Shown here piece by piece: positions 45-54,663 of a stretch of 64,000 nucleotides of DNA. The DNA lies in NCBI RefSeq assembly GCF_037975245.1, contig NC_092576.1, positions 28,945,111 to 29,009,110 on the forward strand, written 5' to 3'. The notes beneath the pieces are model-generated. The model was not told the DNA's origin. It saw only the letters and a program-made list of their open reading frames with translations, and did not search any database. The position numbers and the translations under genes were made by a program. The DNA is from Apostichopus japonicus. Taxonomy: Eukaryota; Echinodermata; Holothuroidea; Aspidochirotida; Stichopodidae. Every line of letters starts with the position of its first letter. Position 1 is the stretch's first letter.

Positions 45-510
45 ACCTGCATTTCAATGTAGACAAAGAAATTGCTGAAACACAAATGTGACACCAAAGT
101 AGAAATCAGCAACGTCGAGAACCACTATAGTTCCTGATGCGTTTTTCTTTTGTTATTATATCTATCGGCTACTTTTCAATATCGGTTACGAGACTTTCAG
201 CAATGTTTGTTCTTGATAAACTGAAAGTGACCAAACGATTGCGATTTCTTCTATACTTCATTTTTTTTTCGTTTTAAATGATGATCAGTTTCAACATGTG
301 TTCTTGACGAAGTTTACATTAAGATCGAAAGTGTCCTCAAATCATTCGGATCAGTAACTGTTTATTGGCAAAATATGGATCCCACTTCAATAATATAGTC
401 GCTTTTCAATTAAAGATGATACGAGACTTACAGAGATTTCAGAGCTTGTAACCCTTGGAAAAGTCTATGCGGTAGTTGACGTATTAAATTTGATGAAATT
501 GTTCTGTAAA
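45..510. repeat. Left-edge block duplicated at 17395-17765
   Basis: This block, which contains the leftmost LRR exon, aligns by eye with 17395-17765 in the same orientation. Shared landmarks include aatgtaga followed by an acacaaatgtgaca-like stretch, gatcatcagtttcaacatgtgt-like sequence, and the exon itself. The copy at 17.4 kb is decayed. It looks like a segmental duplication of one intron-exon unit of the LRR gene. Confidence 0.6.
432..503 (-). CDS. LRR gene 1, LRR exon 10 (72 nt, phase 2-2)
   Basis: Acceptor tttacag precedes 503 and donor gtaagtctc follows 432. The exon encodes one repeat, TISSNLIRQLPHRLFQGLQ followed by ALKSL. It fits the 24-residue pattern of the other exons. It is separated from the previous exon (5141-5212) by about 4.6 kb filled with retroelement insertions, so assignment to gene 1 is likely but not certain. 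Confidence 0.7.
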
Positions 511-532
511 AGTAGAAGCAGAAGCAACAGGA

Positions 533-802
533 TTAAAGGAACGGGGTAGGGAATAAACTGGAGAAGGACAAAGGCAGAAAGTTGTGGCGGAAAAAGGGGG
601 GGTGGAAGATAGCTGTGAGAAGAGGAGTGATGGGGGAACAAGAGGAGAAGGAGGGGGGACAGAAGAAAAGATAGTCATGTCTTTCCTGAATGTAGAGCCC
701 ATGAGGTTCAATCGTGGGAAGGCGTTGTATCCACTGTCTCTCTCTGCTGATTCGTACTAGGTCAGGACGGCTACCTAACGATTTAATCTCCTTCAGGGAC
801 AT
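533..802 (-). mobile_element. Penelope-like element 3'-terminal coding fragment
   Basis: Read on the minus strand this gives LGSRPDLVRISRERQWIQRL followed by PTIEPHGL. The RE..WI..L.T..P.GL signature is what I associate with the end of GIY-YIG-bearing Penelope-like proteins. The rest of the frame is low-complexity Phe/Ser/Pro and probably untranslated. A related, more decayed tail lies at about 15360-15560. It is a fragment with no upstream reverse transcriptase attached. Confidence 0.4.
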
Positions 803-1890
803 GTCGTTAATACTATGGTTGGGAAGGTTAAACGTTTGAATTCTTCAAGTGAATCAATTTCCCGCAGATGGACTAGCAACGAATTCCATGAGTGCGGGGC
901 GGAATCGCAGAAACTGCGATTACCAAATGTTCTCGTGCGTGTCACAGGAACAGTAAGTTGATAGCTCTTGGATAAGGTCGTGAAGATATTCGGGCATACC
1001 ATACTTCAATGCCCTGTACACCGATATCAAATAATTATGCAGCGATATATTATTGATAAAGTTCTGGTTGCACTTTGAAATCAACAGATCAAGGGTATGC
1101 CTTCGATCGTGTGTAGGGCCAGTAATCTAATGTTTCAAATCAAAATCACTAAGATCACTAAGTAGTTCAATACAACTGGTAGCAGAAATATCACGTGGGT
1201 TATCCACGTGAAAGCTCAAGTCTCCACAAAGGAGAAATGTGAAATTCATGAAATAGAGTTACGGTTAAACCATTTTTGGCAGAAAAGTAGGAGTCGATAG
1301 ATAGATTACAACCTGAGACAATACTTTAGGCAGATGAAACAGAACACACAGTAGTTCAAACGACTTAAACCCATCTAGAGTTTGAACAGTTGCCTCCAGA
1401 ACTGTATTAAATATTACATCTATGTCCCTTCCACGTGGCTTTCTGCAAGTTCGGAAAAAGTTTGAAACCAATAGGGGTTATCTCATTTTCGATGACCGTG
1501 TCATTTTCATTAAGCCATGTCTCAGTTAAGACTGTAATATCAAACGCATGATCAGTGATAAAGTCAAGTACTACACCGGTCTTATTCCTGACAGATTTAC
1601 AGTTAAGTTATAGCAGTTTAACACAATCATGAAGAATAACATAGTTGGTTTGCCGATTATGCGATCGAAATCCCGATCGTTGTCCACCATAATGTAGCAA
1701 TCCATTTCCCTTTAGAATGGAGAGTAAGTTCTCATTAAGCTTATTTATGGTTCCCCTGGAACGGAAGCTCAGCAGCTCAGATCTATTATACATAAAGCGA
1801 TCACTAGAAATCGCTATTGAAATCAGGTAGAGAAGAAAGGATGTGACTAGCCAAGTGTGCATCCAGGCAAGTACCTCCATAACCACTGGC
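800..1890 (-). mobile_element. Decayed L2/CR1-like LINE (endonuclease plus RT tail)
   Basis: On the minus strand the 1610-1470 part reads NCKSVRNKTGVVLDFITDHA and then DITVLTETWLNE, the typical start of a LINE apurinic-like endonuclease. Around 1250-1060 come HVDNPRDISATSCIELLSDL and PTHDRRHTLDLLI, the endonuclease C-terminal part. Around 1000-800 come GNRSFCDSAPHSWNSLL and a FK tail, the usual end of L2/CR1/jockey-type RT proteins. The main RT palm region is missing, and stops and frameshifts separate the blocks. It is a dead, internally deleted copy, with the clade assigned by motif memory only. Confidence 0.7.
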
Positions 1891-2654
1891 CCGGATCCTT
1901 TTCCAATAACCGGCCAAAGGCGACACGCCCTTCTGGGGTCTATACTCAGATTGGTGACTCTCTTCGTAGAATCAAAGAAGAGGGTGGGCCACAGGTTCTG
2001 CTGAACGTGGCCCCCTCTGTGTTATACCCACCATTGTTTCGCTCAATGCTCGCGCCTGTGTGCCCGTCGGCTTGCCGGACCGCCATCTCTCCAGATGTGT
2101 GGCGGTCTGTGTGTTGCAAGTCACTAGATAGCCGTCTCAGGGACTTGGCGTGGAGGATTGCACATGGGGTCCTCATCACTAACCATTTTCGCCTAGTCAG
2201 GTGGCGATTAGGTGATGGGATTTGTCCCCGTGTGGGCTGTAAAGCCATCGAGACAATGCAACACCTTTTGCTGGAGTGTCCCTTTGTCCGGTTGGTGTGG
2301 GATTGGTTTCACGCCTTCGTGATTGGTGTTATTGGTTGCACACAGTGGGCCATTAGTAGTGATTTTGTTTTGTATGGTTTGTTGCCCCCTGTGTGCCCAA
2401 CCTGGGTTAGGGATCTGCTGTTGTTGTTTGCCGCTGTCATCAGGAGACACATCTGGAACAGCAGATGCCGCCTAGTCTTCGATGGGGACGTCTGGAGGGC
2501 AGAGGATGTTGTCCCCCTCGTGCAAAGTGACATCAGGTTGCGCATGGAGGCGGACCATGCACGGCTTCCCGACACTGCATTCCGTAGACGCTGGCGCAAG
2601 CCCGTCGTCTACTATCGGGACGGCGTTCCCCGGATGAAATTTGGAGTGAGTTAG
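1857..2654 (+). mobile_element. Tx1/L1-like LINE ORF2 C-terminal fragment (zf-RVT)
   Basis: An open frame of 265 codons whose middle shows a zf-RVT type zinc-binding module: LRDLAWRIAHGVL, then CPRVGCKAIETMQHLLLECP with C-x4-C-x7-H-x4-C spacing, then VW. This module closes the ORF2 protein of L1/Tx1-type non-LTR elements. The polymerase and endonuclease are absent, so the copy is 5' truncated. Base composition is clearly more GC-rich than the surroundings. It probably continues as 3' UTR to about 2900, where gttgacctttggtccgtgtc-like sequence occurs twice. Confidence 0.75.
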
Positions 2655-2899
2655 TTGGTAGGTGTGGGGGCGGTGTGGTCGTTACATAATATAGGTTGGT
2701 TTATTTTTTCTCTTTGTGGTTTGGGGTTGGCTTTTTGGGGCTTGTTTGTTTTGCTTCTGTTGGCCTTTGGGTCCGTGTCCTTTTCGCGTCACGTTAAACG
2801 CTGCGTTAGTGAGAGATTGATGCGTTTCAGTTGTTGCTTTACAGACTGGGTTTGTTTTTGATTTTGTTGACCTTTGGTCCGTGTCCGTTTCTTAGCACG

Positions 2900-3540: not shown

Positions 3541-3550
3541 TATATATATA

Positions 3551-3708
3551 TAAATAGGTAACAAGATATTTCGAGCGTTTACACGGCTCTTCTTCAGTTG
3601 TACTAATGAAATGGAAGAAACTAGACCTTATTGGTATTTAGCTTAGCATGTATGCTCATAAAAGAGAGATCCCTGTTGAGCCCATTGTTGTGTGTGTTGA
3701 GGCGTAAG
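3551..3708. repeat. Inverted repeat arm, left (Penelope-like element)
   Basis: Reverse complement of 4714-4871, with one difference seen (acca-a-taagg versus acca-g-taagg). Contains the stop codon and last codons of the GIY-YIG ORF plus about 65 bp of 3' untranslated sequence. Confidence 0.9.
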
Positions 3709-4702
3709 ATGGTTTTTAGTTCCCGGTTGCTTCTTTCATGAGCGGTTTTGAAGAAGCCGTATAGAATGACAAATTTGAGGTCAGATAAGTTGTGATTGGG
3801 GAGCTTAAAATGTTCGGCAACAGGGAAACCTGGGTTATTATTGCGGATACTTAGTTTGTGATTATTGAAGCGGAGTCTGAACTTTGTGCTGGTTTCGCCA
3901 ATATAGGTGACCTGGGGGCACTTGCAACAATACAGCAGGTAGATGACATTGGCTGAGTCGCAACCAAATCTACCAGGTCTCAGAGTAGTGCCTGAGGCCC
4001 GGTGGAGGAAAGCGGGGGAGGGGTCGAGGTGTGTGCACACCAAGCATCTAGGTTTGTTACAGGGGATGCTACCACTGTCAGGTTCATTACTGGGTGGGGC
4101 GAGATTAGTGCGAAGCAGCACTGAGCGGATGTTACGGGGTTGTCTATATGCTATGACTGGGGGGCTTTGAAGAGTTCAGCTATTGTGGGGTCCGAACCTA
4201 GAGTGCCCCAAGATTGTTTGATTTCATTGAAAAGGGGGCGAAGGGAGGGGTGGTAGGTGACAACAAGGGGTAATCTATCAGAAACAGATTTTTTACGATA
4301 GGTAAGGAGACTAGATCGTTGTAGGGACAGAACCCGTGTGAGGTGGAAGTTAAGTATTCGGTATGGCTATCCCCTTTGAAGGAAAAAATCAAACAGTTCA
4401 ATGGCCTTATTAAGAAAAGTTTGGTCATGTGAGCAGATACGCCGGTATCTGAGTAACTGGCTGTAGACAATGGAATTTTTGGTGTGGCGGGGATGAAAAC
4501 CATTAAAGTGGAGATAAGAGTGCCTATCAGTGGGTTTGGCATACACCGATGTCTCTATTTTGTGATCATCGATCATGACGAGTACATCGAGGAAGGGGAT
4601 TTGCTTAGTGGACCGTTCTGTGGTAAACTTTATGGAATCGTGAAAATCATTGGCAAACGTGAAAAAGTTGTCAAGTTCTTGTTCGCCCTTATCCCATAGC
4701 AT
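3621..4702 (-). pseudogene. Penelope-like RT / GIY-YIG protein remnant
   Basis: The upstream part carries LDNFFTFANDFHDSIKFT, IPFLDVLV, YAKPTDRHSYLHFNGFHP and RRICSHDQTFLNKA, which are conserved landmarks downstream of the RT palm in Penelope-like proteins. After a TAG replacing the usual Tyr of the RGYP-like motif, the frame continues with RLPLVVTYHPSLRPLF. A one-base change in a C-homopolymer then shifts frame before VIAYRQPRNIRSVLLRTNL. The last 165 codons contain IYLLYC, then TYIGET, then R and H residues spaced as in GIY-YIG nucleases, preceded by a Cys-rich CNKPRCLVC. The catalytic YADD box is upstream of the truncation and absent. Confidence 0.85.
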
Positions 4703-4713
4703 ACAAATATCAA

Positions 4714-4871
4714 CTTACGCCTCAACACACACAACAATGGGCTCAACAGGGATCTCTCTTTTATGAGCATACATGCTAAGCTAAATACCAGTAAGGTCTA
4801 GTTTCTTCCATTTCATTAGTACAACTGAAGAAGAGCCGTGTAAACGCTCGAAATATCTTGTTACCTATTTA
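4714..4871. repeat. Inverted repeat arm, right (Penelope-like element)
   Basis: Matches the left arm in reverse orientation and abuts the 5' truncation point of the element at about 4702. The two arms could form a long hairpin in DNA or RNA. Confidence 0.9.
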
Positions 4872-4961: not shown

Positions 4962-5028
4962 GACATATATATATATATACATATATATATATATGCATAT
5001 ATACATATATATATATACATACATATAG

Positions 5029-12946: not shown

Positions 12947-13650
12947 CTGAAAGTAAACAGAACAAAAGATTCAACGGTTTCATTATCTTCATTGACTTCA
13001 AGTAGCTAAAGGAACTTCGAAAGAAGTAAAAATGAATGACATTTCGAGTTTGTATTCTTATATCTTGAAGTCATGTTTAATATCCTTCATATTAAAGATA
13101 ATTGTAATTTATAGTAAAAATCAAAATGATATGAAGCAATTTAATGCGTGGTTTACTGTGTGATTGCGTACATAGATGTCATGTTGACTGTCCATTGAAA
13201 CGTTTCAGGTGGTATGCCAGTGATCGTGTTTCGCGACATATTTCTGTCAGTAATAAAATATCACAAAAGCAAAAATTAATTCCCAACGAATGTGAGCAAT
13301 TTCTGTTCATGTCATTACTTTTTGAAATATCGGGTGCAACAACTGGTATTATGTGATATATTCGTATATCAGTCTGGGGTTTTAAAAAAAAATCAAAATA
13401 GTACTAACAAAAAACCACCATTTAACGTATATTTTAATTTGAGGAAGAAGCCATCTCCTTTAAATGCATGCCCACGTGAATAACTGTCACTGCTCTTTAT
13501 AAACATCACCAAAACGAAAACAGATGGGTTAAACATTCATGTAGATAAACGGAAATTGACATTGCAATATTTGTGACCTAATATTACTCTAAATTTCTAT
13601 AAAATACCTAGTTACCAATAGGGCCCGTGCATAACCGTTCTTATTCTTAC

Positions 13651-13777
13651 ATTTCCGTTGCATTGTGAGGTAACGTTGGTATTACACTCAAACCTTTCTT
13701 AGTACAATCAACGAGGTAAAATGTCTTCTTCGTTTGATGGCAGTCACACGTATGATTGGCACCGCAAGCATTTGGTT
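13651..13777 (-). CDS. LRR gene 1, LRR N-cap exon (127 nt)
   Basis: Phase 1 start and phase 2 end, flanked by acceptor tgttcaacag and donor gtaagaat. Encodes PNACGANHTCDCHQTKKTFY and then LVDCTKKGLSVIPTLPHNAT. The Cys pattern C-x5-C-x-C followed by DC and a VIPxLPxNxT tail is the standard LRRNT cap of secreted or membrane LRR proteins. Its gene 2 counterpart is 34075-34201. Confidence 0.85.
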
Positions 13778-14296: not shown

Positions 14297-14402
14297 TTGT
14301 TGCTTTTCTTATGTCTAGTTGATTATACTGCAGGGCGTCATCGATTGTCGCTGTCATTCCATGAACGTACCAAAAGGACATCACCATGAGCCAGAACCAC
14401 AT
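14297..14402 (-). CDS. LRR gene 1, signal-peptide exon
   Basis: 106 nt, ATG at 14402, donor gtaagtt after 14297, phase 1. Encodes MWFWLMVMSFWYVHGMTATI and then DDALQYNQLDIRKAT. The first 15 residues form a compact hydrophobic signal peptide. This ATG was chosen because the paralogous exon at 34842 starts at the same place; the frame is open further upstream but runs into a SINE. A good acceptor (ttctcttctgtaaatggttcag) lies about 20 bp upstream, consistent with splicing from a 5' non-coding exon near 15958. Confidence 0.8.
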
Positions 14403-22273: not shown

Positions 22274-22350
22274 TTACATGGAAAGGTAGTCGATGTATTT
22301 TCTTTGACAGCGTCTTTTGATGTAACGGTACGCGGGAAGTATTGCCTCAC
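22274..22350 (-). CDS. LRR gene 2, last exon (stop codon)
   Basis: 77 nt after acceptor ttcgaattacag. Completes a Gly codon and encodes EAILPAYRYIKRRCQRKYID followed by YLSM and TAA. A short basic tail following a membrane segment, probably cytoplasmic. Confidence 0.8.
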
Positions 22351-24505: not shown

Positions 24506-24632
24506 CTGAAACAATAACTATAATGGCCGCGTCTAAAGTTATAATACCAATTGATATGTAATTTCCGTAGTCACTGGACATAGGAACAGCAGCGAACAGA
24601 ACCTTGACAAAAATCACAGCGAGGGAAAAGAG
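24506..24632 (-). CDS. LRR gene 2, penultimate exon (membrane segments)
   Basis: 127 nt between acceptor cctcctttcag and donor gtaaggc, phase 0 start and phase 1 end. Encodes LFSLAVIFVKVLFAAVPMSS, then DYGNYISIGIITLDAAIIVI followed by VS. Two hydrophobic stretches consistent with membrane segments following the EQRLQ end of the previous exon. Confidence 0.85.
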
Positions 24633-25255: not shown

Positions 25256-26862
25256 CTGTAATCGTTGTTCAAAAGGGCTCTTCATTGGTGAAAACTTCAC
25301 GTGGAGTGTGAGGAACAACACAGACACACCGATAGTAATTAACTTGGTCAGTGGATCATCCCATCCTAGTAATGTAATCAACATTGTCTGCGTGACCTTC
25401 CTGGCAAGTTCCAGAATTTCCCAAAACCAAAATCCGGGTTTGAAATTCTCACAGAGAAAGTTCAGCCAGACGGGAATGTCATGAGTTTCTTCGTTACTCT
25501 CACTTCTGTTCAATGCGATAGGCTCGCTCGTTAAGTTATCTTCACTGTTGAGTTGGTGGTTTGTGTCTGGTTCTGAAACATGTTCGTTATCACGCTGTCT
25601 CTTGATATATTTACTCAAAAAAAGGAAGAGCAATACAGGAAAAGATATAACATAGAGAAGAGTAGCAAGAAAAGCAAATATCTGGTAATAGAGGAGATCA
25701 CTACATACAATGTCATAATCAGCGCGAAGCAGAGTGATTGAAATATCATTTTCTTTGTAAACCTCAAATGTATCACAGGCACCAGGGTACAAACTGAATA
25801 TGATGTCACAAGTTGATGGATATGTCACAAATATAATTAACAGGACATACGTTGATAGTGCAGATCTCGTTTCGGCAAGCCTAAATTTAAGATTATGCGC
25901 ATCGTAGCGTTTTCTGCACTTGAAGTAGACTCTAAACATTTGTTGACAAGCAAACGCAATTAAAATTACGACAATGGGAAACAAGAGAGCGATTTTAAAT
26001 TCGATCTTAGGATTCAATGATAGCTTCTCGTGTAAGCAATGTGGTTTCACAATCAACCTCAAAATGTTAAATTCAAGTACCGAAATCCATTCTCCAACAT
26101 AATGTAATACTCCAGCCCAACTGACACTGTGAAATGCCTCGAATAGCTCACCTACAACCTGATAAAAACCTAGAACAATTTTGACCCTAGATGATACAAT
26201 GTCTGCTATGGTTCTCCCTTCTTTTGAACGATTCTGCTTCTTGCTGTTCACAATCACAAACACTAGGAATATGATGAAAATACAAACAGTCATACTGATT
26301 TCAAAACAAACCCATACAATATTTGGACACGGAAGGCAAAATCCTAAGACAGAATAATATCCCTTCACACACTTACTACAAAGCCATCCTCTATAACCCA
26401 CCGCACATGAACCAGCTATTTCATTAACTTCATGACTGTTATTATTCTCACAGTTTTCAGGGCTCGAACAAGCAAATACTCTGGGAATCAATTGTTCATA
26501 TTCAACGGTGGATTGATCATAATGTACATTTTCAGTTTGTAGATTCAGTACAAAATTAGAATATTCCTTTAGACTTGCTTTGGGAAATGTCCAATTCCAG
26601 TAATAGCCTGGTAAAAGAGCCTTGTAATCTTGAGAACAATCCAGTCCTTCTTCTAGACATACTGAGCATTTCTCGAATCGATGTAAGCGAGTATAGTTCT
26701 CTTTGCAGGGACAGGCTCGGTATCCAGCGAAAGTACTTTGTTTAGTTCCTTCGGGACACAATATGCACTGCGATGATGACGTGCCAGTTCCATTTTTAAC
26801 GAAGCTACCATTAGGACAGTGCCTGCAAGAATTGTTACCGATATCATCTTGATAAAAACCAC
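25256..26862 (-). CDS. LRR gene 2, large exon: Cys-rich end and multi-pass membrane domain
   Basis: 1607 nt, phase 1 start after acceptor gctcatatag, phase 0 end before donor gtaagttt. It opens with GFYQDDIGNNSCRHCPNGSF and ILCPEGTKQSTFAGYRACPC, continuing the ephrin-receptor-like (GCC2/GCC3-type) repeats. A glycosylatable linker with ALLPGYYWNWTF and an EGF-like GYRGWLCSKCVKGYYSVLG follow. Hydrophobic segments then appear: VWVCFEISMTVCIFIIFLVF, ALLFPIVVILIAFACQQ, YVLLIIFVTYPS, YYQIFAFLATLLYVISFPVL, and KLITIGVSVLFLTLHVKFSP. A Glu/Asn-rich cytoplasmic loop (about 40 residues) lies before the last ones. The layout resembles invertebrate multi-pass proteins with extracellular Cys-rich ephrin-like repeats. 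I cannot name an orthologue. Confidence 0.9.
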
Positions 26863-27296: not shown

Positions 27297-27478
27297 CTGC
27301 AGGGCAAGGTGTACATTGACCACTTTTGTTGCCATAGCTACCAGGGGGGCACGGTTGACATATGGCTGTCCGAGATTCCAATGTACAGATAAAACCTTGG
27401 CGTCTTAGAACCTCATAAAAGACATCTCCAGATTGACTGAACGTCAGTGTAGGGACAATACCGCTTTTAACGCATTCA
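27297..27478 (-). CDS. LRR gene 2, ephrin-receptor-like Cys-rich exon
   Basis: 182 nt, phase 2 start after acceptor tttccaaag, phase 1 end before donor gtgagt. Encodes SECVKSGIVPTLTFSQSGDV, then EVLRRQGFICTLESRTAICQ, then PCPPGSYGNKSGQCTPCPAG. The CxPCPxGSYGNxxGQCxPCPAG motif joins directly to GGFYQDD of the next exon, a classic ephrin-receptor-like repeat split by an intron. Confidence 0.85.
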
Positions 27479-27799: not shown

Positions 27800-28080
27800 A
27801 TTTTAATTTTTTTTACAATTATACCTTGTGATACATGATTGACATCTGCAGAGAATTTATATAACACAGCTAAGCGGAATGGGTGAAAAATCTGCCTTAC
27901 CCCTCCCCCTCCTCCGTATTTGCGTCGTTGATGGCAGTCATATGGTGATAAGTAGTACATCAAATGGCCAACTATTTTATCTAAACCGACATGAAGAGTT
28001 TTTTTTCAATACCTTGTGATATTTCTGTTTGGCATCGGTAAAGACTTCAGGTAACCACAGCTAAGCAGTCTGTAAGGAAT
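27800..28080. repeat. Local tandem similarity inside a gene 2 intron
   Basis: About 27824-27895 and 28008-28065 share taccttgtgatac/attt, gacatctg/ggcatcgg and aaccacagctaag-like pieces. The right copy could be read as an exon (LLSCGYLKSLP) with a good acceptor, but the left copy has a stop. More likely a short tandem duplication than coding exons. Confidence 0.35.
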
Positions 28081-28561: not shown

Positions 28562-29244
28562 CTTTGATGGACAAAAACACAGAAATAGAAATGACGCAGA
28601 GTAATCAATATAAACATATTTGTCATGGTAACTAACTATTCGGGGCAAAAGAGAGAGAAAACCAATTGAACATCAGTTTACAAACATGTGCATTATATCC
28701 ATTTACAAAATGACGTCACTGTTGTCATTATTATCAGTAAAGGAAGATGGTGGATAGATTAGTGGATGTGGCCATGCCCTCCCATCTTGAATCGAGGGAA
28801 ATATTTCAATCGGCGTCCAGAGATATTTATGTAGGCTTCATTATTACCCTTATATGACAGTCGGTTGCAGCTTGTGCTGTACCACGCCCTTCTATAAAGG
28901 CTTATGCCCCTCCCAAAAGCAGTCGCGGAATGTTGAATTTGCCTCTCTGTTTCATCCCGCTCCCACACCCGCCCTCCCCACTCACTTAACAACAACACTT
29001 TAATTTATTTGCTCGCCACTGCTGCCAACAAAATAAACAATGATTATCATTCGAGTGGTACTCACATAGTTGATTGTAATTCTGTCGTTGTGAATGGACT
29101 TTTATGGAGTTCTTTTATTTTGTTGTTAAAGAGGTAGCTTTGAAATCAAATGAAAGTTATTTAATGTTCTTATGAAGCGAAGAAAAAACAATGAACAAAA
29201 ACTTGTTTAGATGGATAAATTCATACGGCCAATTTATGACTTAC

Positions 29245-29313
29245 ATGTTTTTAATAGGCATGTCTGCAAAAGCATTTCCCTCCACTTCACTGATGTCGTT
29301 GTTGCTGAGAAAT
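29245..29313 (-). CDS. LRR gene 2, 69-nt LRR exon
   Basis: Between acceptor ggtttcag and donor gtaagtcat. Encodes FLSNNDISEVEGNAFADMPI followed by KNM: a 23-residue repeat with NAF in place of GLF, typical of a later repeat before the C-terminal region. Confidence 0.85.
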
Positions 29314-31704: not shown

Positions 31705-31776
31705 ATATTTGTAATGTTCCAATTCCTGGAGAATAATCCAGCAGGGATTTCTCTGATCAAGTTGTATGACACATTT
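31705..31776 (-). CDS. LRR gene 2, LRR exon 1
   Basis: 72 nt between acceptor atatcgtag and donor gtaagtgta, phase 2-2. Encodes NVSYNLIREIPAGLFSRNWN followed by ITNM. Confidence 0.85.
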
Positions 31777-32340: not shown

Positions 32341-32412
32341 ATTGCTTGCAACTTCATGATTCCTGGAAAATTGTCTTAGTGCAAGCTCCTCAACTGGTTA
32401 TGCGATAACTTC
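32341..32412 (-). pseudogene. Dead LRR exon in gene 2
   Basis: Exactly 72 nt after a good acceptor (ctgtgtccag). Reads KLSHNQLRSLH, then TAA, then DNFPGIMKLQA. The expected donor reads tgagtgt instead of gtgagtgt, as if one G was lost. Both lesions would keep it out of the mRNA. It would have been the first repeat after the N-cap. Confidence 0.75.
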
Positions 32413-32449: not shown

Positions 32450-33240
32450 AATATAAGTTATTGCTTTCGAAATCAATTGTCAATAATTTCGATTAGATGA
32501 TCAAGGCTTTGTAAGGACTGAACTTTATTACTTTACGTAGAAAACTTAGAGGACAGGAAGGATACCTAAATAATTTTTTGTTAAAACAGTTTGGCTCAAG
32601 TCGAGCGTAATATTTCGTAACATATTTGTTTTACTTTTTATTGTAGAGCTATCTATGTTAACATTTTTAACAATTAGTAAGAGGCTTTGTGCTATTTGTT
32701 ATGAAAAACATCTCCTATGTATTGATGTAAATCAATATGTACTTATAGGTGTTTCAAATTTGGTACATTTGCAAGTAATGCCTCCGGCAAAATATGATTG
32801 CCGGGAAAGATTTTACGTTAACAGAGCTTGCGAGTGGAACCGGGAACCGACTAAAAACTTCGTTTTACTCCCAATAGTAGTAGAATTGTTCACTAGTTTC
32901 ATAAGTTCAAAAAAAATTTAATACTAAAATTTTTCTTTGATTTAGTCTCCTTTGTAAAGCTGATACTTTGTAGAAAAGTCATACAGAGTATAACCTGTCA
33001 CAAAAAGCAACAATTTGATCCACTCTAAACCCTAGTTATTGAAATCGTAACCGTAAGATCATGATGCGGATATAAATTTTGTCCATCATTTTTTCTGACC
33101 TGGTTTTACAATGTAGTATTCTGTTTTAAAATACTGTAATTACTCTCTAAACTTTGCATCGATTTTCACTTCTCTTTGAAAGCTGTTATACCGTTTATTA
33201 ACATAAAATTTGACCAAAATGGAAAGTTGCTTCGGAATAA
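32450..33240. other. No gene seen (gene 2 intron)
   Basis: AT-rich intron sequence, no LRR-like exon found, no repeat recognised. Confidence 0.4.
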
Positions 33241-34074
33241 GTGTAAACGTATCATATTTCGAAATTGAATTATCATATTTTTGTGTCTCCTTCATATTAA
33301 AGATTATTGACATTGTATAAATCTATAAAGAAAAAATCTATAAAATAATATTAGGCAATGTAATACGTGGTTCACTTTTTGATTGCCTACATAGATTTCA
33401 GGTTGATTGTCCATTGGAACGTTCTTGGTGGTATGCCAGTGAGTCTGTTACGCGATAAATTTCTGTCAAACATATAAAACATCACAAAGCAAATATTAAT
33501 TCAAAATGAATGTGAGCAATATCTGATATTGTGATTGCTTCTTCAATATTGGATGCCACTACTGTACTTTGTGCATATATTCATATACCAACATCATTTG
33601 TTATCAGTGGAGTGCCAAGGGGGCCGGTGACAGAGCCCAACTCCAATCTTCAGTCTAGAAAGAAGTACACCACAACAATCAAGTGTCAGCCCATATTTTT
33701 CTATCTTAAATAAAATATTAGTTACCACAACCTTGCGTTGTGCTCTACCTATATAGACCTACCTTAAGTCTAAATATGCCTCAGAATGCACCACGTATAC
33801 TTTTATACCTCGGCAAGACAACCCTCCCCCAACCCCCCCCCCCCCCACATTACATTGGAGTCGGCACCAACGTCCCAGGGCAGAATACACTACTGTATAT
33901 ACTGTTTGTATTCCTTGATTTGCTTCTGTCCCTCCCATAAAGGATGAACCCCGTACTAAACATTCATGTAGAACAAAACTTTACATTTTAATATTTGTTA
34001 GATCATATGACTCGAAATGAGTATGTAATACATAGTTACCAATAGGACCAATGCATAATCGTTCTTAGTCTTAC

Positions 34075-34201
34075 ATTTCCGTGGCATTGTTAAGTAACGT
34101 TGGTGTTACACTCAAATTTCTTAACGAACAATCAACGAGGTAAAATGTATTCTTCGTTTGATGACAGTCACACGTATGATTAGTACCGCAAGTGGTTGGC
34201 C
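34075..34201 (-). CDS. LRR gene 2, LRR N-cap exon
   Basis: 127 nt between acceptor ttcaacag and donor gtaagac, phase 1 start and phase 2 end. Encodes PTTCGTNHTCDCHQTKNTFY then LVDCSLRNLSVTPTLLNNAT. Cys positions are identical to gene 1. Confidence 0.85.
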
Positions 34202-34736: not shown

Positions 34737-34842
34737 TATTTTCTTTTCTTATATCTAGTTGAGTATACTGCAGGGAGTCATCCATTGTCGTTGTCGTTCC
34801 ATGAACGCAGCAAAATGACATTACCAGGAGCCATAACCACAT
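34737..34842 (-). CDS. LRR gene 2, signal-peptide exon
   Basis: 106 nt, ATG at 34842, donor gtaagtt, phase 1. Encodes MWLWLLVMSFCCVHGTTTTM then DDSLQYTQLDIRKEN. Residues 1-15 form a signal peptide; the ATG aligns with that of gene 1. A candidate acceptor (aatggctcag) lies upstream as in gene 1. Confidence 0.85.
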
Positions 34843-37262: not shown

Positions 37263-37526
37263 TTTCACACTCACCAAAATTGCAATTATATATATTCATT
37301 GCCTTCGTCGTTTACCTTCATTTCATTTAATAGTCTGTTCAAAGTATTTCTTTCGAGATCCAGCTTTGGGAATCACAAATTATTCGAGTTGGTTAGCATC
37401 ATGTTTGATCTCTACAGTAAAAAAAAATGTCACCAGAACAGAACTAGATTTGTTCGATACAGGTGACAAACGCCTTCAGTGGAATTACGACCTTCCTTAC
37501 CGGTTTCAAACCTCTGGACATACACT

Positions 37527-37630
37527 CAGCGTCCGTATTCTAGTAGTTAGGTTGTCCGCATATAAAGCGGGAGGCCCGGGTTCGAATCCCGGTAGAGGCT
37601 GGAAGTTTTTTCACTGTTCTGGATTTTCCA
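37527..37630 (+). mobile_element. tRNA-derived SINE (short)
   Basis: A-box-like tagtagttaggttgtcc and B-box gggttcgaatccc (37578-37590), then ggtagaggctggaag and tcactgttctgg. The tRNA-like fold lacks a proper 3' acceptor arm and the same tail appears at 37.2 kb, so it is a SINE, not a tRNA gene. It sits 40 bp past the broken last exon of gene 3. Confidence 0.65.
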
Positions 37631-37671
37631 ATTCACTGCAGTTTCAAAGATATATATATTTATACACTTAT

Positions 37672-37824
37672 ATCTCTGTTAGTTTTGGCAGTCCAGAAAA
37701 CGACGTGTTGCTTAGGAAGTTAAGATCATTCCTCTGTAACATCAAATATTGTAGTTGGTGAGAATTTGCATTTGAGTTCCACAAACCAGCTGGAATTTTT
37801 GACAGTAGATTTTGCGACAGGTCC
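37672..37824 (-). CDS. LRR gene 3, two-repeat exon with broken donor
   Basis: 153 nt after acceptor ttcaacag. Encodes DLSQNLLSKIPAGLWNSNAN, SHQLQYLMLQRNDLNFLSNT and SFSGLPKLTEI. Aligns with 29450-29596 of gene 2. The position where gtaagt is expected reads ataagt, i.e. +1 G to A, so normal splicing out of this exon is lost. If read through, a TAA follows at once, giving an LRR-only protein. Confidence 0.75.
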
Positions 37825-38335: not shown

Positions 38336-38407
38336 AAGTAACAGTTGAGCTGTAATTCACTAAAGACGTCTACTGGTAAGGATGTCATGCGATTACCCGA
38401 TAACGTC
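38336..38407 (-). CDS. LRR gene 3, LRR exon
   Basis: 72 nt between acceptor catttatag and donor gtaagacc, phase 2-2. Encodes TLSGNRMTSLPVDVFSELQL followed by NCYL. Confidence 0.8.
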
Positions 38408-39393: not shown

Positions 39394-39465
39394 AGAAATT
39401 CGATCTTTGGAGTTACTCGGAAGAATCCATTTGGTATTGTCGAAAGTTGATTGTTCCCTAGGTGT
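39394..39465 (-). CDS. LRR gene 3, LRR exon
   Basis: 72 nt between acceptor ctttccag and donor gtaagtata, phase 2-2. Encodes HLGNNQLSTIPNGFFRVTPK followed by IEFL. Confidence 0.85.
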
Positions 39466-39578: not shown

Positions 39579-39650
39579 AATGCTCTGAGATCAGAACAGT
39601 TGGATAATAAATCTTCGGGTAAGTACTTCAGTCCAATGTAAGAAATATAT
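39579..39650 (-). CDS. LRR gene 3, LRR exon
   Basis: 72 nt between acceptor tacatcag and donor gtaagtata, phase 2-2. Encodes YISYIGLKYLPEDLLSNCSD followed by LRAL. The conserved Asn is replaced. Confidence 0.8.
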
Positions 39651-45800: not shown

Positions 45801-47816
45801 TTATTTCTCGTATCTCACTGAACGATTACCGCCGAAATTCAAATGTGTGACGTCACCAAAGCTTAATAAATTCCGGCGAACCTTGGGTCTGCTTCCCAAC
45901 TGTCGGACGAGGTCAACGTCACTTTCCTCGTTTGACTCATTGGAGTACAGTCTACAAACAAAGTTCCTTGTCACTTCTTTCAGCTTTGGCGATGTTTGGA
46001 ATGGAGTATGGACGATAGTTGCAAATTCCTCCATGAGGGTTGGAACTTTCCTGCATTAACTTGCAGCAATATCGCTTACCCTTAAACTTGAAGGAAGACG
46101 TGCTGTCTGATCCAGTGAATGCGTGAAAGAGGACCATTGCTTTGCAAGTTGTCGTGCCCAGGCTTGTAGCGATTGTATTCAGGGAGATAATTCTTGATGT
46201 CTTTCCCGCCTTGAAGGAGATCCAGACCTCTGCCGCCGGATTCATAGCCATGATGTGATGAAAATTACTCAGAAGAATTACGACAACATCTCCAGTATGA
46301 AACATCCCAAGTGACGATGTTTGGAGGGCGTGGAGAAGATGTACTAGGACATGAGTGTCCGCTTCCTCGTGGTTGCATTGATCCATCGGTAGACTGTTTC
46401 CAACATGGTGAACTTGATCACCTGCAGTAACGTAGACATTCTTGTCATCTGGGAACTGTCCTGTTATCTTCTTTGACAGGAATGAGAACAATTCCTTCTT
46501 GTTATCAGCGTTCGCCAGAAACTTCTGCCAATTTCCGGGGATTCTGGCAGTACCATTTACGCGTTTTCGGGTGCCTGTTCCTTGTTTTTCCCTTGTGCCT
46601 CCTTTGATTGTCAGTACCCGATACTGGTCCCAGACAATGTATACTCTTGTCGATCGTTTCAAGTCGTGGGAACTCTTGGGCAGAATACCTTGTCGAAATA
46701 TGTATCAAAGGCCTTGCCTTGGAAAGTTGTACCAGGAAGGGAGTGTATCAGTACTCCACCGTCAATAACAATGAAGTCGTAAAGATCTGGCGCAATCAGC
46801 TCCTTGTCGACAGAAATGGTGCTACTTACACTGGTTTCCATGATGTATACCAACAAATCTGATTTGGTACAATAATTGAGAGACCCTTCGGATGACAACG
46901 CAGGTGGGTATGGGGAAGATTCGTGACGAAAAAACTCCTCCAAATCACCCCCACGGCTGTCTAGCCCAACAAAGGCTTGCCCATATAGCTCTGCATGACG
47001 TTTGAAGTGCTGCATTCTTAGCTTAGTTGCTGTCCTCTTTGTTTTCTTCTCATGGAACAACAGTAACTTATTCCGCTTGATCGGTGCTGTCAGAAGTGTA
47101 ACATTTGAATCAAGCACACTCTCACTGAAGTTCTTGTACTGCCCTTGTCCCATAGATTCGAATTTATAATGCAAAAAATCTACGACCTCCAGCGACTTCT
47201 TCCTTAATGAATTGGAGCAATTCATTTTCTGTTGTAGCCTCAAGGTTTTCGCTAGTCATTTCTTGTTACAAATTGCATCGTAACGTCGGGTGAACCATGT
47301 GTAGCAATTCCGATGATACTTGGCTTCAATGGCGACCAGATCACCTTCTGCCATGAGTGCCTCGATACGCTCTTCTCCCCGTGCGACTGCCTTTTGGTGA
47401 ATTTGTCGGGTGAGTTCAACCTTCTGGAAAGAAGGGTCTGCTGCATTTGTTTCGTCACCACCGAAGAGACACAGATTACGATTAACAGCTGCACTAGTCC
47501 GCCGAGTTCTTTTTCTTGCAGGAGGCAATCCTTCATAATGACGTTTATTTGCATGATCTAGTGCTGATGCCCTGTACAGCTGACGGCATGATTTATGCCA
47601 GGATGCCTGATTCCTCAGCATGGATTCTGCATCTGGAATTTCAATGTCTGGGTGGGGAGCAGCACTAATCGCCCTGAACTGACGTACAAGGTTTGTGATT
47701 TGTGTGAAGGCTCCCTCTCTTCGACTGGCGACTGGATTTGAAAGAGGACATACAAGCTCTTCCTCCGTTTGTTTTTGGCAAAGAATGCACAGCTGCCATC
47801 TCCTTGTCCCAGCCAT
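45801..47816 (-). pseudogene. Transposon-borne PIN/XPG-like protein, broken
   Basis: ATG at 47816, preceded by a good acceptor (ttgctgtctgtccag). N-terminal part: WQLCILCQKQ (CxxC), ASWHKSCRQLYRAS (HxxxC), and EAKYHRNCYTWFTRRY, a probable zinc-binding region. The core has YDFIVIDGGVLIHSLPG, CNHEEADTHVLVHLLH, HTGDVVVILLSNF and LFHAFTGSDSTSSF. These acidic positions (D, E/D, D, D) are ordered as in PIN/XPG-type nucleases, where EAD and GCD motifs carry the metal ligands. Here TSDTD-like and GCD-like motifs look altered (TGD, GSD). Lesions: TGA at about 47258, a one-base frameshift near 46660 (before KRSTRVYIVWDQYR), and another near 46045 (before LMEEFATIVHTPF). Similar proteins are, to my memory, multi-copy and unnamed in many marine invertebrates. 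Confidence 0.65.
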
Positions 47817-48532
47817 CTCAGAAACGATCTGGACAGACAGCAAGGAAAAAAAAATATGAAATAACTGTCATCTATTGCATAAATTGATCTGCACTGCAGT
47901 GAAAAACTCCCATTTCAACTTCACAGCCATCCATGATATCTGAAAACTGTAAAAAGAAAGTGATCAACATAATAAAGGGTTTTCTTCGGTTTGATTTTGA
48001 AAAAAAGGCAGACTAACCCTAGCTCGTTGACACAGCCCAAATAAAAAAAAATTGGAAAAAGATGAACAGGAGAGAGATAAAATAATACCCGATTTGCGTC
48101 ATTACTTTTTGAATTTAACGTCTCATTGGTATAAATTATCATATAAAATATGCTCCAACCATATTTATTTAATTTCTTCAATTACGCTTGCATAAATACC
48201 TAGGTTAAGACACCAAGATCACCATTATATGTTGAGAAGGACAGAATTTAAGAGGAACAATGCGAAAAAAAACCGAAATTGCAGCCAGTTTTGATTTCCA
48301 GCATACTCAAAACATGTTTCAACTCCAATTTATTCCTTACACATAATTAGCTTAAACCCTTTATATTTACCCTGTGACGTATTTAGAGAGGGGCTAGGAC
48401 ACCATAGCCCCAACCCTCAATCTCCCAGTAATACATTCTAAAACATCAAAATTATATGCTATTTTTCTCGTGGACCCCACAGGATCTTTGCCTCAGTACC
48501 TCACCAGGGGCCCTGGACCACACACCTATAGG

Positions 48533-50090: not shown

Positions 50091-50094
50091 AATC

Positions 50095-50140: not shown

Positions 50141-50223
50141 TCAAATTAGTAGTGAAAACGAAACTTTTGCATCAACTTGAAAATCGTTATGATACCATGA
50201 AATAAATATATGATTATACGAAC

Positions 50224-50295
50224 AGATATTGTGGTTTCTTGTTGTTCCGAACCAGTTTCTCCGGTAGTTTGACCAATTTGTTGTGACTAAGATTA
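50224..50295 (-). CDS. LRR gene 3, LRR exon (block A)
   Basis: 72 nt after acceptor acttgcag; donor gttcgtat, a GT donor with poor consensus. Encodes NLSHNKLVKLPEKLVRNNKK followed by PQYL. Duplicate of 51797-51868. Confidence 0.75.
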
Positions 50296-50945
50296 CTGCA
50301 AGTAACAACATTGAATCGTCAAAAGCAACAGGTAGGAATGCGTCAAATATACTTTTCACTGAAATACTTGACAGTTTAAAGTAAAGTAGATTAGTCAAAA
50401 TATGTGAAAATTACCTAAGACTACAATCCTTGTTTCAGAGTCTTTGAAACAAAGGTTGTAGAAAGCAAAAGAATAACATTTAAGAAAATTAGACATTCAG
50501 TGTTTTTACATCATCAATGTGCATAATTAGCTAATATGTATATATTAATCAGTATTACGAGAATTAAGAAAATACTTGTAAAATGGTCAATCTTTGATGG
50601 ATTTTCATGGGAGGTATGTGCATAATGTAGTATGCCTATTAGACTGATTAAGACAATATTGTTCATAGGTGTTCGTAAACTACAATTTTTTTAACCATTC
50701 TCACTAGCTGCAGTCAATACACCTGGTAATCGCTTCGTGTTAAAAGACAAAAAAAACTGTAGCTGAAATATATGCTTGGACCACAGAAAATGTGTTCATC
50801 TGTCACTATGACAACTGTAATACAAAATGGCACACGTGTACAAGCAGCTTACACTTCTTTGGTTGTTCTAGCAAAGTATAATATTGTTCCTTCCGTTTTA
50901 TTATTTTTTTTTTTAGATGTTTAATATAACTTTAATATAACTCAC

Positions 50946-51017
50946 ATGGTTTTCAATTTCGTTGCAGTGATGAAAGCATTCCAATCAATATAAGTCAAAT
51001 TGTTCATTGATAAATAT
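50946..51017 (-). CDS. LRR gene 3, LRR exon (block A)
   Basis: 72 nt between acceptor ctttctttag and donor gtgagtta, phase 2-2. Encodes YLSMNNLTYIDWNAFITATK followed by LKTM. Confidence 0.8.
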
Positions 51018-51796
51018 CTAAAGAAAGAAATTCAAAGAAATCTTTGACAGCATCACAGATGATAATGCATATCTGTTCATGAGTTATATTGTGTTACAAC
51101 CATAAAATACAAAAAAAGAAATTAAGTATCACTAGTAAACATAATAATAAAGTAACCGCTTATAACGCGCCATATCTGTCAACCTGAAGCTCCTGACACA
51201 GATAATGAGAAATATTTTATACTATACAGACTCGCTATGAAATGAAAGTAGCTAAATAGAGTTAATCAAGTATAGTTAAGGGTTCAGACAAAAAGGAAAG
51301 TGTTCAGTTGAGATTTGAATTGGGTGAGGTAGCTTTCCTGCCGAATGCTAGGAAGTAGCGAGTTCCAGAAGGTTGACCCACATGCGGAAAAAGATCGGTG
51401 TCTTCAATAGTGTTGTTTTCTAATCTAGTCTAGTCTTACTAAAACATGAATACGAAGATGAAAACAAAGACAAATGTTTGATCTGTTTCCTCAAAAATAT
51501 ACATCAGATGACAATGATTTAATCTTGTTTGAACGCAGTTTGAAGTATATTAATTTTTATTTTCGCATTTCAGTTTAATTTTATCATTATTATAAATATA
51601 GCATGATGATAATACCAACATCTACGTTACTTAAATATGCTTCCGTTATCAAACATTTCACCTCTTGCAGGACTATAATCATTTCATTGTGCGGAATAAT
51701 CAAGTATAATATGCTGTGTACTTTGAAATTGTTAAATTGGTGTCTTCAATTATGAAAATCTTGTACGGTACTATGAAATAAAATAATAATACGAAC

Positions 51797-51868
51797 ATCG
51801 ATTGTAAATTCTCGTTATTCCAAACCAATTTCTCCGGTAGTTCGACTAATTTGTTGTGACTAAGGTCA
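51797..51868 (-). CDS. LRR gene 3, LRR exon (block B)
   Basis: 72 nt after acceptor acttgcag; donor gttcgtat as in block A. Encodes DLSHNKLVELPEKLVWNNEN followed by LQSM. Confidence 0.75.
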
Positions 51869-52443
51869 CTGCAAGTAACAAAAATGTATAGTTAAAAGCA
51901 AAAGGCAGAAATGCGTCAACCTTGCCACATTATTTATTAAACAGTTTGAAGCAAAGTAGATTATTGCATTGTAACTACTAATTTCTTTGAAACAAAGGTT
52001 GTAGAATACAAAATAATTACATCTCGGAAAATTAAGCATTCACTGTTTTTACATCATCAATGTGCATAATTAGCTAATATGTATATATTAATAAATATAA
52101 CTAGAACTAAGTTTTGTGCATGATTTATAATATTGGGGTGATTGAGACAGTATTGTTCATAGGTGTGTACCAATAATATGGAACCTCCCTCACTAGCTGC
52201 AGTCAATACACCTGGTAATCGCATCGTATTAAACGACAAACAAGAACCAGGAGCTGAAATGTATGATTGGACCACATAGATTGTCTTCATCTGTCACCAT
52301 TACAACGGCAATAAAAATGTCACATATATCACGTGTACAATTCAACACACACTTCCTTGGCTGTTCTAGCAAAGTATATTCTTGTTCCCTGCGTTTATTT
52401 ATATTTGTATGCAGATATTTAATATAACTTTAATATATCTCAC

Positions 52444-52515
52444 ATAGCTTTCAATTGTGTTGCAGTATTGGAAGCATTCCAATGAATAGAAGTCAAATTG
52501 TTCATTGATAAATCT
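52444..52515 (-). pseudogene. LRR gene 3, LRR exon (block B) with damaged acceptor
   Basis: Duplicate of 50946-51017. Where block A has ctttctttag before the exon, this copy has ctttctataa, so the acceptor AG is lost; the next AG is two bases inside the exon and would shift frame. The repeat otherwise reads MNNLTSIHWNASNTATQLKA. Donor gtgagata is intact. Confidence 0.75.
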
Positions 52516-53406
52516 TTATAGAAAGAAATTGAAAGAGAAATATGACAGCATCACTGATGATAACGTTTATCTGTACGTGAGCAATATTGTGATACGACCA
52601 TAAAATATTCACATCATATTAACTATCACTAGTTTAACTAAACCAATGATATTCAAAAATAAATGACACATGTTTGATCTGTGTCCTCAAGATAGTAAGC
52701 AATCTTTGTTGAAGAAATTGTCTGGTTGATGATTTTGATACATTGTCTTCATAGTTCTTTATTCTAACCATGTAAAAAATATCCCCATTTGACATTTTCT
52801 TCTTGTAGAAATCTGGGTTTCAAATTCACCAGTTTCTCACCAAAAGCACCGTTTGTTCCAACGCATCAGTTTGGTGCATGGCGTTGGGCGAGCAAATAGG
52901 CAAACCGAGCGACTTGAAGTTAGCACACCCATTTACGCAGCAAATACACTCTCGCGTGTACACACACAGGTGATTGCCTATTATATATTAACGTACACAT
53001 CGCGAACGTACGTAGTCTTCCACGCCCAGTTGGTTGCACATAATACACAGTCACACTGAAACCACATTTCATAAACCGTGATTAGAAATCGCTGATATAA
53101 AATTCACAGAAAAATGTTACAGTAAAAGGAAGCTTGAAAGTGTTTGGAATATCGAAAGATGGAACTAAGCGGAATCAGAATATAGAGCAGAATTTAGTAC
53201 CGAGAAGCTTAGGCTTCGCAGGACTGTACGATTGTAAACGTAAGAGTATCCTAAATGTGAACATTCTTCACATTGGAGATGGACAACGCAATGCAAAAAC
53301 AACGAAGAGTCTGCTGTTCAAACATATATTGTGTTACACAACAATCACGAAATCACTGATACACTGCAAATTCATAGGCGTAGGAGCCTAATTTAATTTG
53401 GGGGGA

Positions 53407-53645
53407 CTGTAACGACTTGCCAGAAAAATATAACCAATATTTTTCGCGCGGTCCGAGCGTGTTCAACATGTTAATGTGCATTTCATATAGGCATTCATCG
53501 GTTATTACATCGCATGCCGATAACCGATGAATGCCTATATGACATGCACATTAAGATGTTGAACGCGCGCGAAAAATTTTGGTTACATTTTTCGTGTTAT
53601 TACCCTTCCATATTGTTTATAATTATTGGGGAAGTCGTTACAATA
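53407..53645. repeat. Large near-perfect palindrome
   Basis: Arms meet around 53510-53520: ataggcattcatcggttat on the left and ataaccgatgaatgcctat on the right, extended by aatgtgcat/atgcacatt and gttcaaca/tgttgaac. Outer parts share tgtaacgactt and aagtcgttaca. No ORF. Confidence 0.85.
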
Positions 53646-53669
53646 ATAACGATAATAATAATATCAGTT

Positions 53670-53935
53670 TAACCATGGAAAAACATATTGCAAATTATTC
53701 TTCTTTCGGTAGGTGCCCGAAAAAAATCTCAGCATATTGCCCGAATTTTCACCCCAAAATATTGAAAAACACATTGCAAATTATTTTTCTTTCAGTAGGT
53801 GACCGAAAAATGCTCAACATATTGCCCGAATTTTCAGCAAAAAAATTGAAAAAAAAAAACACTGCAAATTATTCTTCTTTCAGTAGGTGCCCGAAAAATT
53901 CTCAGCATATTGCCCGAATTTTCACCAAAAGTTTT
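53670..53935. repeat. Three-copy minisatellite, about 92-bp unit
   Basis: Each unit contains gcaaattattcttctttc, gtaggtgcccgaaaaa, and agcatattgcccgaattttc. A reading frame through it is a by-product of the repeat and not a gene. Confidence 0.85.
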
Positions 53936-54533
53936 GGATTTGGGGGGCTGCAGCCCCCCCCCCCCCCCCGCCTCCTACGCCTATGTGCAAATATAACAGA
54001 TTAACGGGTTTTTTTTGAGTATATATTATTTATAATAAATTTCACGAAAATTAATGGAGAAATTTATCTGTATTCAAACGCGGTTTTTTGTTGTGATTAC
54101 TGTAGGAACTGAATGGAACGTGGGTTATGTCGTAATCTGCATTTGCAAATATGACGTCACGTTCGCCACGGTATATTTGAAACATCCATCCTAAAAGATG
54201 AAAAAAAAATTGTTTCTCTGTCAAACGCATCATTAGCGTTCTCATATTTTGAATTTTTTTTTGGTAAAAGTATTAATCGTTTTTCAAGGTAACTTCTAAA
54301 GGCTACCAGACAATTCTCTTAAAAATTGTTATGATGATATGAAAGTATGACATCAATAATATACATCGGATGAAAATACATCATTTTTTTGGTGAACGCA
54401 GTATGAAATATGGTGATATTTTGTTTTTCAATTAATGATTATAAACAGTGGGAGGTATACTGGATTATTGCATATTAAAGTGACAGTACTTTTCACAAAA
54501 TTACAACCGAAAACGAAATAATATCAAACTTAC

Positions 54534-54663
54534 ATTTTAGTTACATTCGAAGGGATGTCAGTAGGGACATCGTGTAGGCTCCTATTAGAACAATCCATTG
54601 CGTAATAGTTGTATGTTTTATGACAAAGGCATTTTGCAATACCCCCGCATGCAGTTCCAGGAA
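54534..54663 (-). CDS. LRR gene 3, LRR N-cap exon
   Basis: 130 nt between acceptor ccctttaaag and donor gtaagtttg, phase 1 start and phase 2 end as in genes 1 and 2. Encodes PGTACGGIAKCLCHKTYNYY, then AMDCSNRSLHDVPTDIPSNV and TK. Cys pattern and DVPxDIPxN ending identify an LRRNT cap. An ATT/TTA repeat lies just upstream, and no signal-peptide exon was located with confidence. Confidence 0.85.

What the first reader, a model, noticed from the sequence alone, without database searches (positions are those of the whole stretch)
432..54663. Cluster of LRR genes built from single-repeat 72-nt, phase-2 exons
More than twenty exons on the minus strand each encode exactly one LRR, start and end in phase 2, and are separated by 0.1-2 kb introns. 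Three N-cap exons (13651, 34075, 54534) head three tandem loci. Identical phase makes each exon a cassette that can be added, lost, duplicated or skipped without changing frame. One-repeat-per-exon LRR genes are known (LGR/Slit types), but a tandem, actively remodelled cluster with a multi-pass C-terminus is unusual.
Basis: partly seen in the sequence, partly recalled or inferred. Interest (0 to 1): 0.75.

Follow-up and report, generated by a model that had tools for sequence, protein, structure and literature searches.

The report
Sea-cucumber receptor genes with shuffled repeats
In what looks like a sea cucumber genome, neighbouring copies of a large, apparently undescribed cell-surface receptor gene keep the same membrane part but gain and lose whole leucine-rich repeats, because nearly every repeat sits on its own interchangeable exon.

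Summary
The window carries 23 single-LRR exons on the minus strand (22 of 72 nt, one of 69), phase 2-2; the plus strand gives none at the same threshold. Gene A (N-cap 13651) continues left of the window and splices in silico to 32 exons and an open 1,384-residue protein: signal peptide, LRR N-cap, 26 LRRs, Cys-rich region, about 7-9 membrane segments, short tail. No 7tm_1 or TIR match, so neither LGR nor Toll. At least 75 loci carry its membrane exon, 50 on this chromosome; ten form one 0.32-Mb cluster, each matched by order and strand to one N-cap. Five compared cluster genes have about 26, 22, 13, 11 and 8 usable LRRs, although their membrane exons are 91-98% identical. Exons are absent in blocks, decayed in place, or duplicated. 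All 79 usable exons checked end in T at codon position 2, so any join gives a hydrophobic residue. Corrections: locus 3 (54534) is a truncated orphan without a membrane part, one exon carries two LRRs, and gene B has a stop and a lost acceptor. Transcription, splicing and function are untested.

The parts
14297..14402 (-). gene A signal-peptide exon (phase 0 to 1)
   Evidence: found also in B, D and G6
13651..13777 (-). gene A LRR N-cap exon (phase 1 to 2)
13172..13243 (-). gene A LRR exon L1
12875..12946 (-). gene A LRR exon L2
12006..12077 (-). gene A LRR exon L3
8505..8576 (-). gene A LRR exon L4
7037..7108 (-). gene A LRR exon L5
5810..5881 (-). gene A LRR exon L6
5636..5707 (-). gene A LRR exon L7
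5141..5212 (-). gene A LRR exon L8
432..503 (-). gene A LRR exon L9; L10-L26, cap, Cys-rich, membrane and tail exons lie left of the window (to -16262)
34737..34842 (-). gene B signal-peptide exon
34075..34201 (-). gene B LRR N-cap exon
33391..33462 (-). gene B LRR exon L1
33073..33230 (-). junction in gene B where about 15.5 kb of gene A (exons L2-L12) has no counterpart; shared with gene D
32747..32815 (-). decayed relic of LRR exon L13 (both splice sites lost)
32342..32412 (-). decayed relic of LRR exon L16 (donor lost, frameshift, stop)
31705..31776 (-). gene B LRR exon L17
31363..31434 (-). gene B LRR exon L18
30748..30819 (-). gene B LRR exon L19
30555..30626 (-). gene B LRR exon L20
30031..30102 (-). 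gene B LRR exon L21
29450..29596 (-). gene B two-repeat exon L22+23, open but acceptor lost
29245..29313 (-). gene B LRR exon L24 (69 nt)
29066..29137 (-). gene B LRR exon L25
28490..28561 (-). gene B LRR exon L26, AG and GT present, in-frame stop
28013..28069 (-). gene B 57-nt cap exon after the LRRs (phase 2 to 2)
27297..27478 (-). gene B first Cys-rich (Ephrin_rec_like region) exon (phase 2 to 1)
25256..26862 (-). gene B large exon: Cys-rich region and most membrane segments (phase 1 to 0)
24506..24632 (-). gene B exon with the last two hydrophobic segments (phase 0 to 1)
22274..22350 (-). gene B cytoplasmic tail exon with stop codon
54534..54663 (-). locus C N-cap exon (another subfamily)
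51797..51868 (-). locus C LRR exon
50946..51017 (-). locus C LRR exon
50224..50295 (-). locus C LRR exon
50178..52633 (-). tandem copy of a 0.9-kb unit carrying two LRR exons (51753-52633 and 50178-51136, 74% identical); one exon of the upstream copy looks broken (two bases fewer)
39579..39650 (-). locus C LRR exon
39394..39465 (-). locus C LRR exon
38336..38407 (-). locus C LRR exon
37672..37824 (-). locus C two-repeat exon remnant (153 nt), donor lost here but GT at the 8 matching sites in L002-L008; no membrane exon follows

Best explanation
These are genes of a large expanded family of multi-pass cell-surface receptors. A constant module (Cys-rich region, about 7-9 membrane segments, a tail of about 25 residues) anchors and most likely signals; a variable LRR solenoid binds ligand. 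Nearly every repeat is a phase 2-2 exon whose last base is T at codon position 2, so an exon can be deleted, decay and be skipped, or be duplicated, and the joined codon still gives the hydrophobic residue of the repeat. Unequal recombination and decay therefore change the solenoid's length in whole repeats while the rest stays readable. Shown: gene anatomy in silico, family size (lower bound), differences in exon number between five paralogs, stronger constraint on the constant module. Inferred: receptor role, ligand recognition (innate immune or chemosensory), mode of signalling, the recombination mechanism, and that the predicted splice sites are used.
For: Gene A open over 32 exons and 1,384 codons. 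LRR_8 E 4.4e-96; ectodomain best PDB match LGR4, E 1.7e-47, followed by other LRR proteins. Membrane exon in 75 loci; 10 to 10 match of N-caps and membrane exons in the cluster by order and strand. Exon matrix of five genes; 11-exon absence shared by B and D; duplicated L1 and L18 in G6. 79 of 79 usable LRR and N-cap exons of the five genes end in T (the two G6 duplicates not counted); 351 of 351 forward joins in gene A give I, L, V, M or F. dN/dS over 10 pairs: Cys-rich 0.12-0.28, membrane part 0.25-0.54, LRR 0.43-0.61.
Against: No transcript or protein evidence. 17 of the 75 membrane-exon matches contain a stop in the aligned frame; for gene A and G6 the exon itself is open, so that stop lies outside it, but others may be pseudogenes. 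Gene B has a stop in L26 and a lost acceptor, so it may be dead. LRR dN/dS stays below 1 in all 10 pairs. Concave-face codons range from 0.33 to 1.19 in 9 pairs (undefined for B-D), above the other LRR codons in 8 of 9, but only two pairs were tested (p about 0.04 each, chosen after seeing the ratios, uncorrected, pairs not independent). No fold could be assigned to the membrane domain (pLDDT 40).
Confidence: 0.72

Rival explanations
1. The exon differences are mainly decay: most copies, including B and C, are dying pseudogenes, and only a few long genes such as A or G3 work. Exon loss is then neutral debris, not useful remodelling.
For: Locus C is an orphan fragment; gene B carries a stop and a dead acceptor; relic exons in B, D and G3; 17 of 75 membrane-exon matches with a stop in the aligned frame.
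Against: D and G6 have short ectodomains, and the signal-peptide, N-cap, cap, Cys-rich, large and membrane exons tested there are all intact; the Cys-rich part is under purifying selection in all 10 pairs, dN/dS 0.12-0.28; G6 has gained exons.
Confidence: 0.2
2. The length differences are fixed specialisations: each paralog recognises its own developmental or matrix partner (LGR or Slit like), and the cluster is not an immune or chemosensory repertoire.
For: Best solved ectodomain match is LGR4; dN/dS of LRRs below 1 overall.
Against: 75 loci, mostly in clusters, and quick turnover are more typical of immune or chemosensory families (general knowledge); no 7tm_1 domain.
Confidence: 0.2
3. The window holds ordinary LGR-type or Toll-type receptors.
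Against: No 7tm_1 or TIR match at E up to 1 in the 18 large-exon members scanned, nor at E up to 0.01 in full-length gene A; the membrane profile has no credible PDB relative; a Cys-rich region with weak Ephrin_rec_like and DUF7630 matches instead.
Confidence: 0.04

Closest known systems
LGR family (LGR4/5, glycoprotein-hormone and relaxin receptors)
   Different: no rhodopsin-type 7TM match, Cys-rich Ephrin_rec_like/DUF7630-like region, dozens of clustered copies, usable repeats vary from 8 to 26 between close paralogs
Toll-like receptors, expanded in sea urchin (recalled)
   Same: large LRR receptor family with many paralogs
   Different: no TIR domain found, several membrane segments, LRRs on separate exons
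Lamprey variable lymphocyte receptors (recalled)
   Same: diversity made by varying the number of LRR modules between constant caps
   Different: VLRs assemble somatically; here only germline differences between paralogs are seen
Sp185/333 (SpTransformer) genes of sea urchins (recalled)
   Same: clustered echinoderm genes that differ by presence or absence of sequence elements
   Different: those elements lie within one exon of a secreted protein; here each element is an exon of an LRR receptor

Membership tests
LRR receptor ectodomain | LRR array with Cys-rich N-cap after a signal peptide | tested here: met
   LRR_8 E 4.4e-96; N-cap exon found in all four paralogs and signal-peptide exon in three of four (not fetched for G3); the LRRNT Pfam model itself was not reported at E 0.01 and the signal peptide was judged by eye
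LGR family | rhodopsin-type seven-helix domain (7tm_1) | tested here: not met
   not among the 22 families at E up to 1 in 18 large-exon members nor at E up to 0.01 in full-length gene A
LGR family | one LRR per exon, phase 2 | tested here: met
   24 single-repeat exons and one double in gene A, all 2-2; that LGR genes share this is recalled
Toll-like receptor | cytoplasmic TIR domain | tested here: not met
   tail is about 25 residues; no TIR match
TRP-like channel (PF06011) | TRP-like membrane domain | tested here: inconclusive
   1 of 18 members at E 0.094; no PDB relative by sequence; model too poor to compare
Ephrin_rec_like / DUF7630 Cys-rich proteins | matches above the Pfam gathering score | tested here: inconclusive
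   16 and 17 of 18 members at E up to 1, best 7.7e-4 and 3.1e-6; below the cut-off for the window protein and for gene A

The most novel reading that the evidence does not exclude
The universal phase-2, T-ending exon ends act as a joining code that cells use: the LRR exons are spliced alternatively (perhaps also across neighbouring genes), so that a gene such as A makes many ectodomain lengths, a germline and splicing analogue of lamprey VLR or insect Dscam diversity attached to an undescribed multi-pass membrane domain. Stop-bearing or dead-acceptor exons, as in gene B, would be tolerated because they are skipped.
Probability: 0.15. Interest if true: 0.88.

Novelty: new variant of a known kind. 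Interest (0 to 1): 0.62.

Why it matters
It is a natural system in which the unit of exon evolution equals the unit of protein structure: relic exons, block absences and duplications can be read gene by gene next to intact homologs. It points to a receptor family of at least 75 membrane-exon loci whose membrane domain has no convincing Pfam or PDB relative by sequence in the searches made here. Whether a repeat-per-exon design is exploited by splicing to make receptor diversity is directly testable with long-read RNA data.

Tried and rejected
LGR and Toll membership rejected for lack of 7tm_1 and TIR matches. Fold of the membrane domain: a single-sequence AlphaFold2 model of the window's large exon reached pLDDT 40 and was not used for any fold search. 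The PDB profile search gave six hits at E 0.45-0.89, antibody chains and a ribosomal protein; NCBIfam one hit at E 0.57. Other weak Pfam hits of the large exon, not believed: YtpI (2 of 18 members, best 5.2e-4), EmrE (3 of 18, best 0.0032), PMP1_2 (3 of 18, best 0.012), WLS-like_TM (1 of 18, 0.066). The simple LxxLxLxxN regex failed (1 useful hit of 3), because the exon boundary cuts the motif. Phage collection: no match.

Papers: ten searches. None of the listings showed a paper on an LRR plus Ephrin_rec_like plus multi-pass family in echinoderms; this covers only that open-access library, those terms and the rows listed. Passages seen, not whole papers: PMC11699755 (snail resistance, unrelated), PMC10344927 (genome size), PMC13228809 (0 occurrences of 'LRR', 'leucine-rich', 'ephrin' and 'DUF7630' in its main text), PMC6993872, PMC10445921, PMC6267866. 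Statements on VLR, Sp185/333, Dscam, sea-urchin Tolls and LGR exon structure are recalled.

Positive selection: only weak signals (p about 0.04 in the two pairs tested).
Full report
Setting. The window is G000:C16:28945111-29009110 of a 671,581,487-base eukaryotic genome in 35 contigs, C16 being 46,036,110 bases. Size and largest chromosome agree with the sea cucumber Apostichopus japonicus assembly of PMC10344927 (671.60 Mb, 34 scaffolds, 23 chromosomes of 18.21 to 46.02 Mb; passages seen); the contig number differs by one. The species is thus an inference, a strong one. Coordinates below are window coordinates; negative numbers lie left of the window.

Observation. The plain LRR regex fails because the intron cuts the codon of a conserved leucine. 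A splice-aware scan finds the exons: 41 hits (39 non-overlapping) on the minus strand against 0 on the plus strand over 83 kb; 23 single-repeat exons lie inside the window. The matrix was trained on 20 of them; of the stretches scanned (A, B, D, G3, G6: 25, 8, 10, 19 and 11 hits on the sense strand, 0 on the other), D, G3 and G6 were not used in training.

Gene model. Gene A was completed with 19 kb from the left. Its 32 exons are: signal peptide 106 nt (phase 0 to 1), N-cap 127 (1 to 2), 24 single-LRR exons of 69-75 nt and one double of 147 nt (all 2 to 2), a 57-nt cap (2 to 2), a 182-nt Cys-rich exon (2 to 1), a 1,604-nt exon (1 to 0), a 127-nt membrane exon (0 to 1) and a 77-nt tail with stop; 4,155 nt without internal stop, AG/GT at every internal border. 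The last two exons were found by conservation between A and B. The start codon is a guess from the frame; 5' exons were not sought. Hydropathy, family-averaged for the large exon and from gene B alone for the last exons, gives seven segments above 1.4 and two weaker ones (1.09, 1.27), so 7-9 membrane passes.

Family. The large exon of gene B matches 75 loci (79 rows, four of them second pieces): 50 on C16, 9 on C4, 7 on C14, 2 each on C9, C23, C2 and C5, and 1 on C12 (a lower bound, 75 of 114 candidates scored); 17 of the 75 show a stop in the aligned frame. Ten, gene B included, lie at C16:28.77-29.06 Mb with 85-100% identity to gene B, and the ten N-caps found there stand one before each, on the same strand. 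A second N-cap query, from locus C, finds 35 N-caps, 3 shared with the first 14, so 46 in all, on C16 and C9; short queries, so also a lower bound. Pfam sees LRRs, weak Ephrin_rec_like and DUF7630, and nothing convincing for the membrane part; PDB has no credible relative of the large exon, while the ectodomain is closest to LGR4.

Remodelling. A's 25 LRR exons were projected onto four cluster paralogs, none of them dropped. G3: 21 intact, 2 decayed (L3, L14), 2 absent (L5, L15). G6: 10 intact (one of them L25 at 84 nt), 1 with lost acceptor (L17), 14 absent, and L1 and L18 present twice; its L7 match is weak (69% in the exon) and may not be the orthologue. D: 10 intact, 2 decayed (L13, L16), 13 absent. 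B: 8 intact, 4 broken (L13, L16, L22+23, L26), 13 absent. Absent means no blastn match at E 1e-4. Usable repeats: A 26, G3 22, G6 13, D 11, B 8; the large exons of the five are 91.3-98.4% identical over all ten pairs. B and D share the same junction, where about 15.5 kb of A with L2-L12 is replaced by about 160 bp, and the same lesions in L13 and L16. Since G3, at least 100 kb away on the other strand, keeps most of the long form in the same order, loss in the B/D lineage is the simpler reading, though gain in A and G3 is not formally excluded. The signal peptide of G3 and the tails of G3, G6 and D lay outside the fetched stretches and were not tested; the 'D' tail hit lies at the neighbouring gene.

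Joining code. Every usable LRR or N-cap exon checked in the five genes ends in T at codon position 2 (A 26 of 26, B 9 of 9, D 11 of 11, G3 22 of 22, G6 11 of 11), so the split codon is always hydrophobic; all 351 possible forward joins in gene A give I, L, V, M or F. This follows from the conserved leucine of the repeat and needs no extra selection, but it makes every deletion or skip mild at the joint.

Selection. Over 10 gene pairs dN/dS is 0.12-0.28 in the Cys-rich part, 0.25-0.54 in the membrane part and 0.43-0.61 in the LRRs; the N-cap ranges from 0.21 to 1.98 on few changes. Concave-face LRR codons range from 0.33 (A-D) to 1.19 (G3-G6) in 9 pairs, undefined for B-D, and exceed the other LRR codons in 8 of 9; two pairs were tested, p about 0.04 each, uncorrected. 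Between B and D the large exon is 98% identical while the N-cap is 88% and the signal-peptide exon 79%, which would fit gene conversion of the constant module; this was not tested formally.

Locus C. Its N-cap and exons match a gene at C16:35.39 Mb (82-90% over the N-cap and first exons, 78-85% further on), in which 14 LRR exons were scanned, including the same tandem pair of two exons; six of these 14 lie in a stretch without a match in C. C ends in a two-repeat remnant whose donor is lost, while the 8 matching sites in L002-L008 keep GT. No membrane exon lies between it and gene B, and the 4.6 kb around the membrane exon of the 35.38-Mb gene have no match in window 34900-56000. C is an orphan fragment. 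Whether its N-cap could splice into gene B is open.

Function. A large clustered receptor family with a constant membrane module and a solenoid of changing length is best read as a recognition repertoire, immune or chemosensory. That step is inference from architecture; nothing here measures expression or ligands.

Noticed in passing
window 3551-4871: Penelope-like element remnant: GIY-YIG ORF at 3621-4175 (-) (Pfam E 1.5e-4, just below its cut-off) overlapping one arm of a 167-nt inverted repeat, 98% complementary. The element name is recalled.
   Followed up: partly
window 1851-2654 (+): Retrotransposon remnant with a zf-RVT match just below its cut-off.
   Followed up: no
window 37198-37295 and 37560-37673: Short repeat with a tRNA B-box-like GGTTCGAATCC; a 60-80-bp part recurs on many contigs at 81-92% identity: probably a tRNA-derived SINE, directly next to the lost donor of locus C.
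   Followed up: partly
window 45952-47867 (-): Three adjoining long ORFs without Pfam match inside the long gap of locus C, perhaps a mobile element.
   Followed up: no
large exons of genes B and D (window 25256-26862; 96801-98407): 98% identical while the N-caps are 88% and the signal-peptide exons 79% identical; possible gene conversion of the constant module.
   Followed up: partly
C16:28451956-28452084: Another N-cap of the locus C subfamily with no membrane exon listed downstream of it on its strand: possibly a second orphan copy.
   Followed up: no
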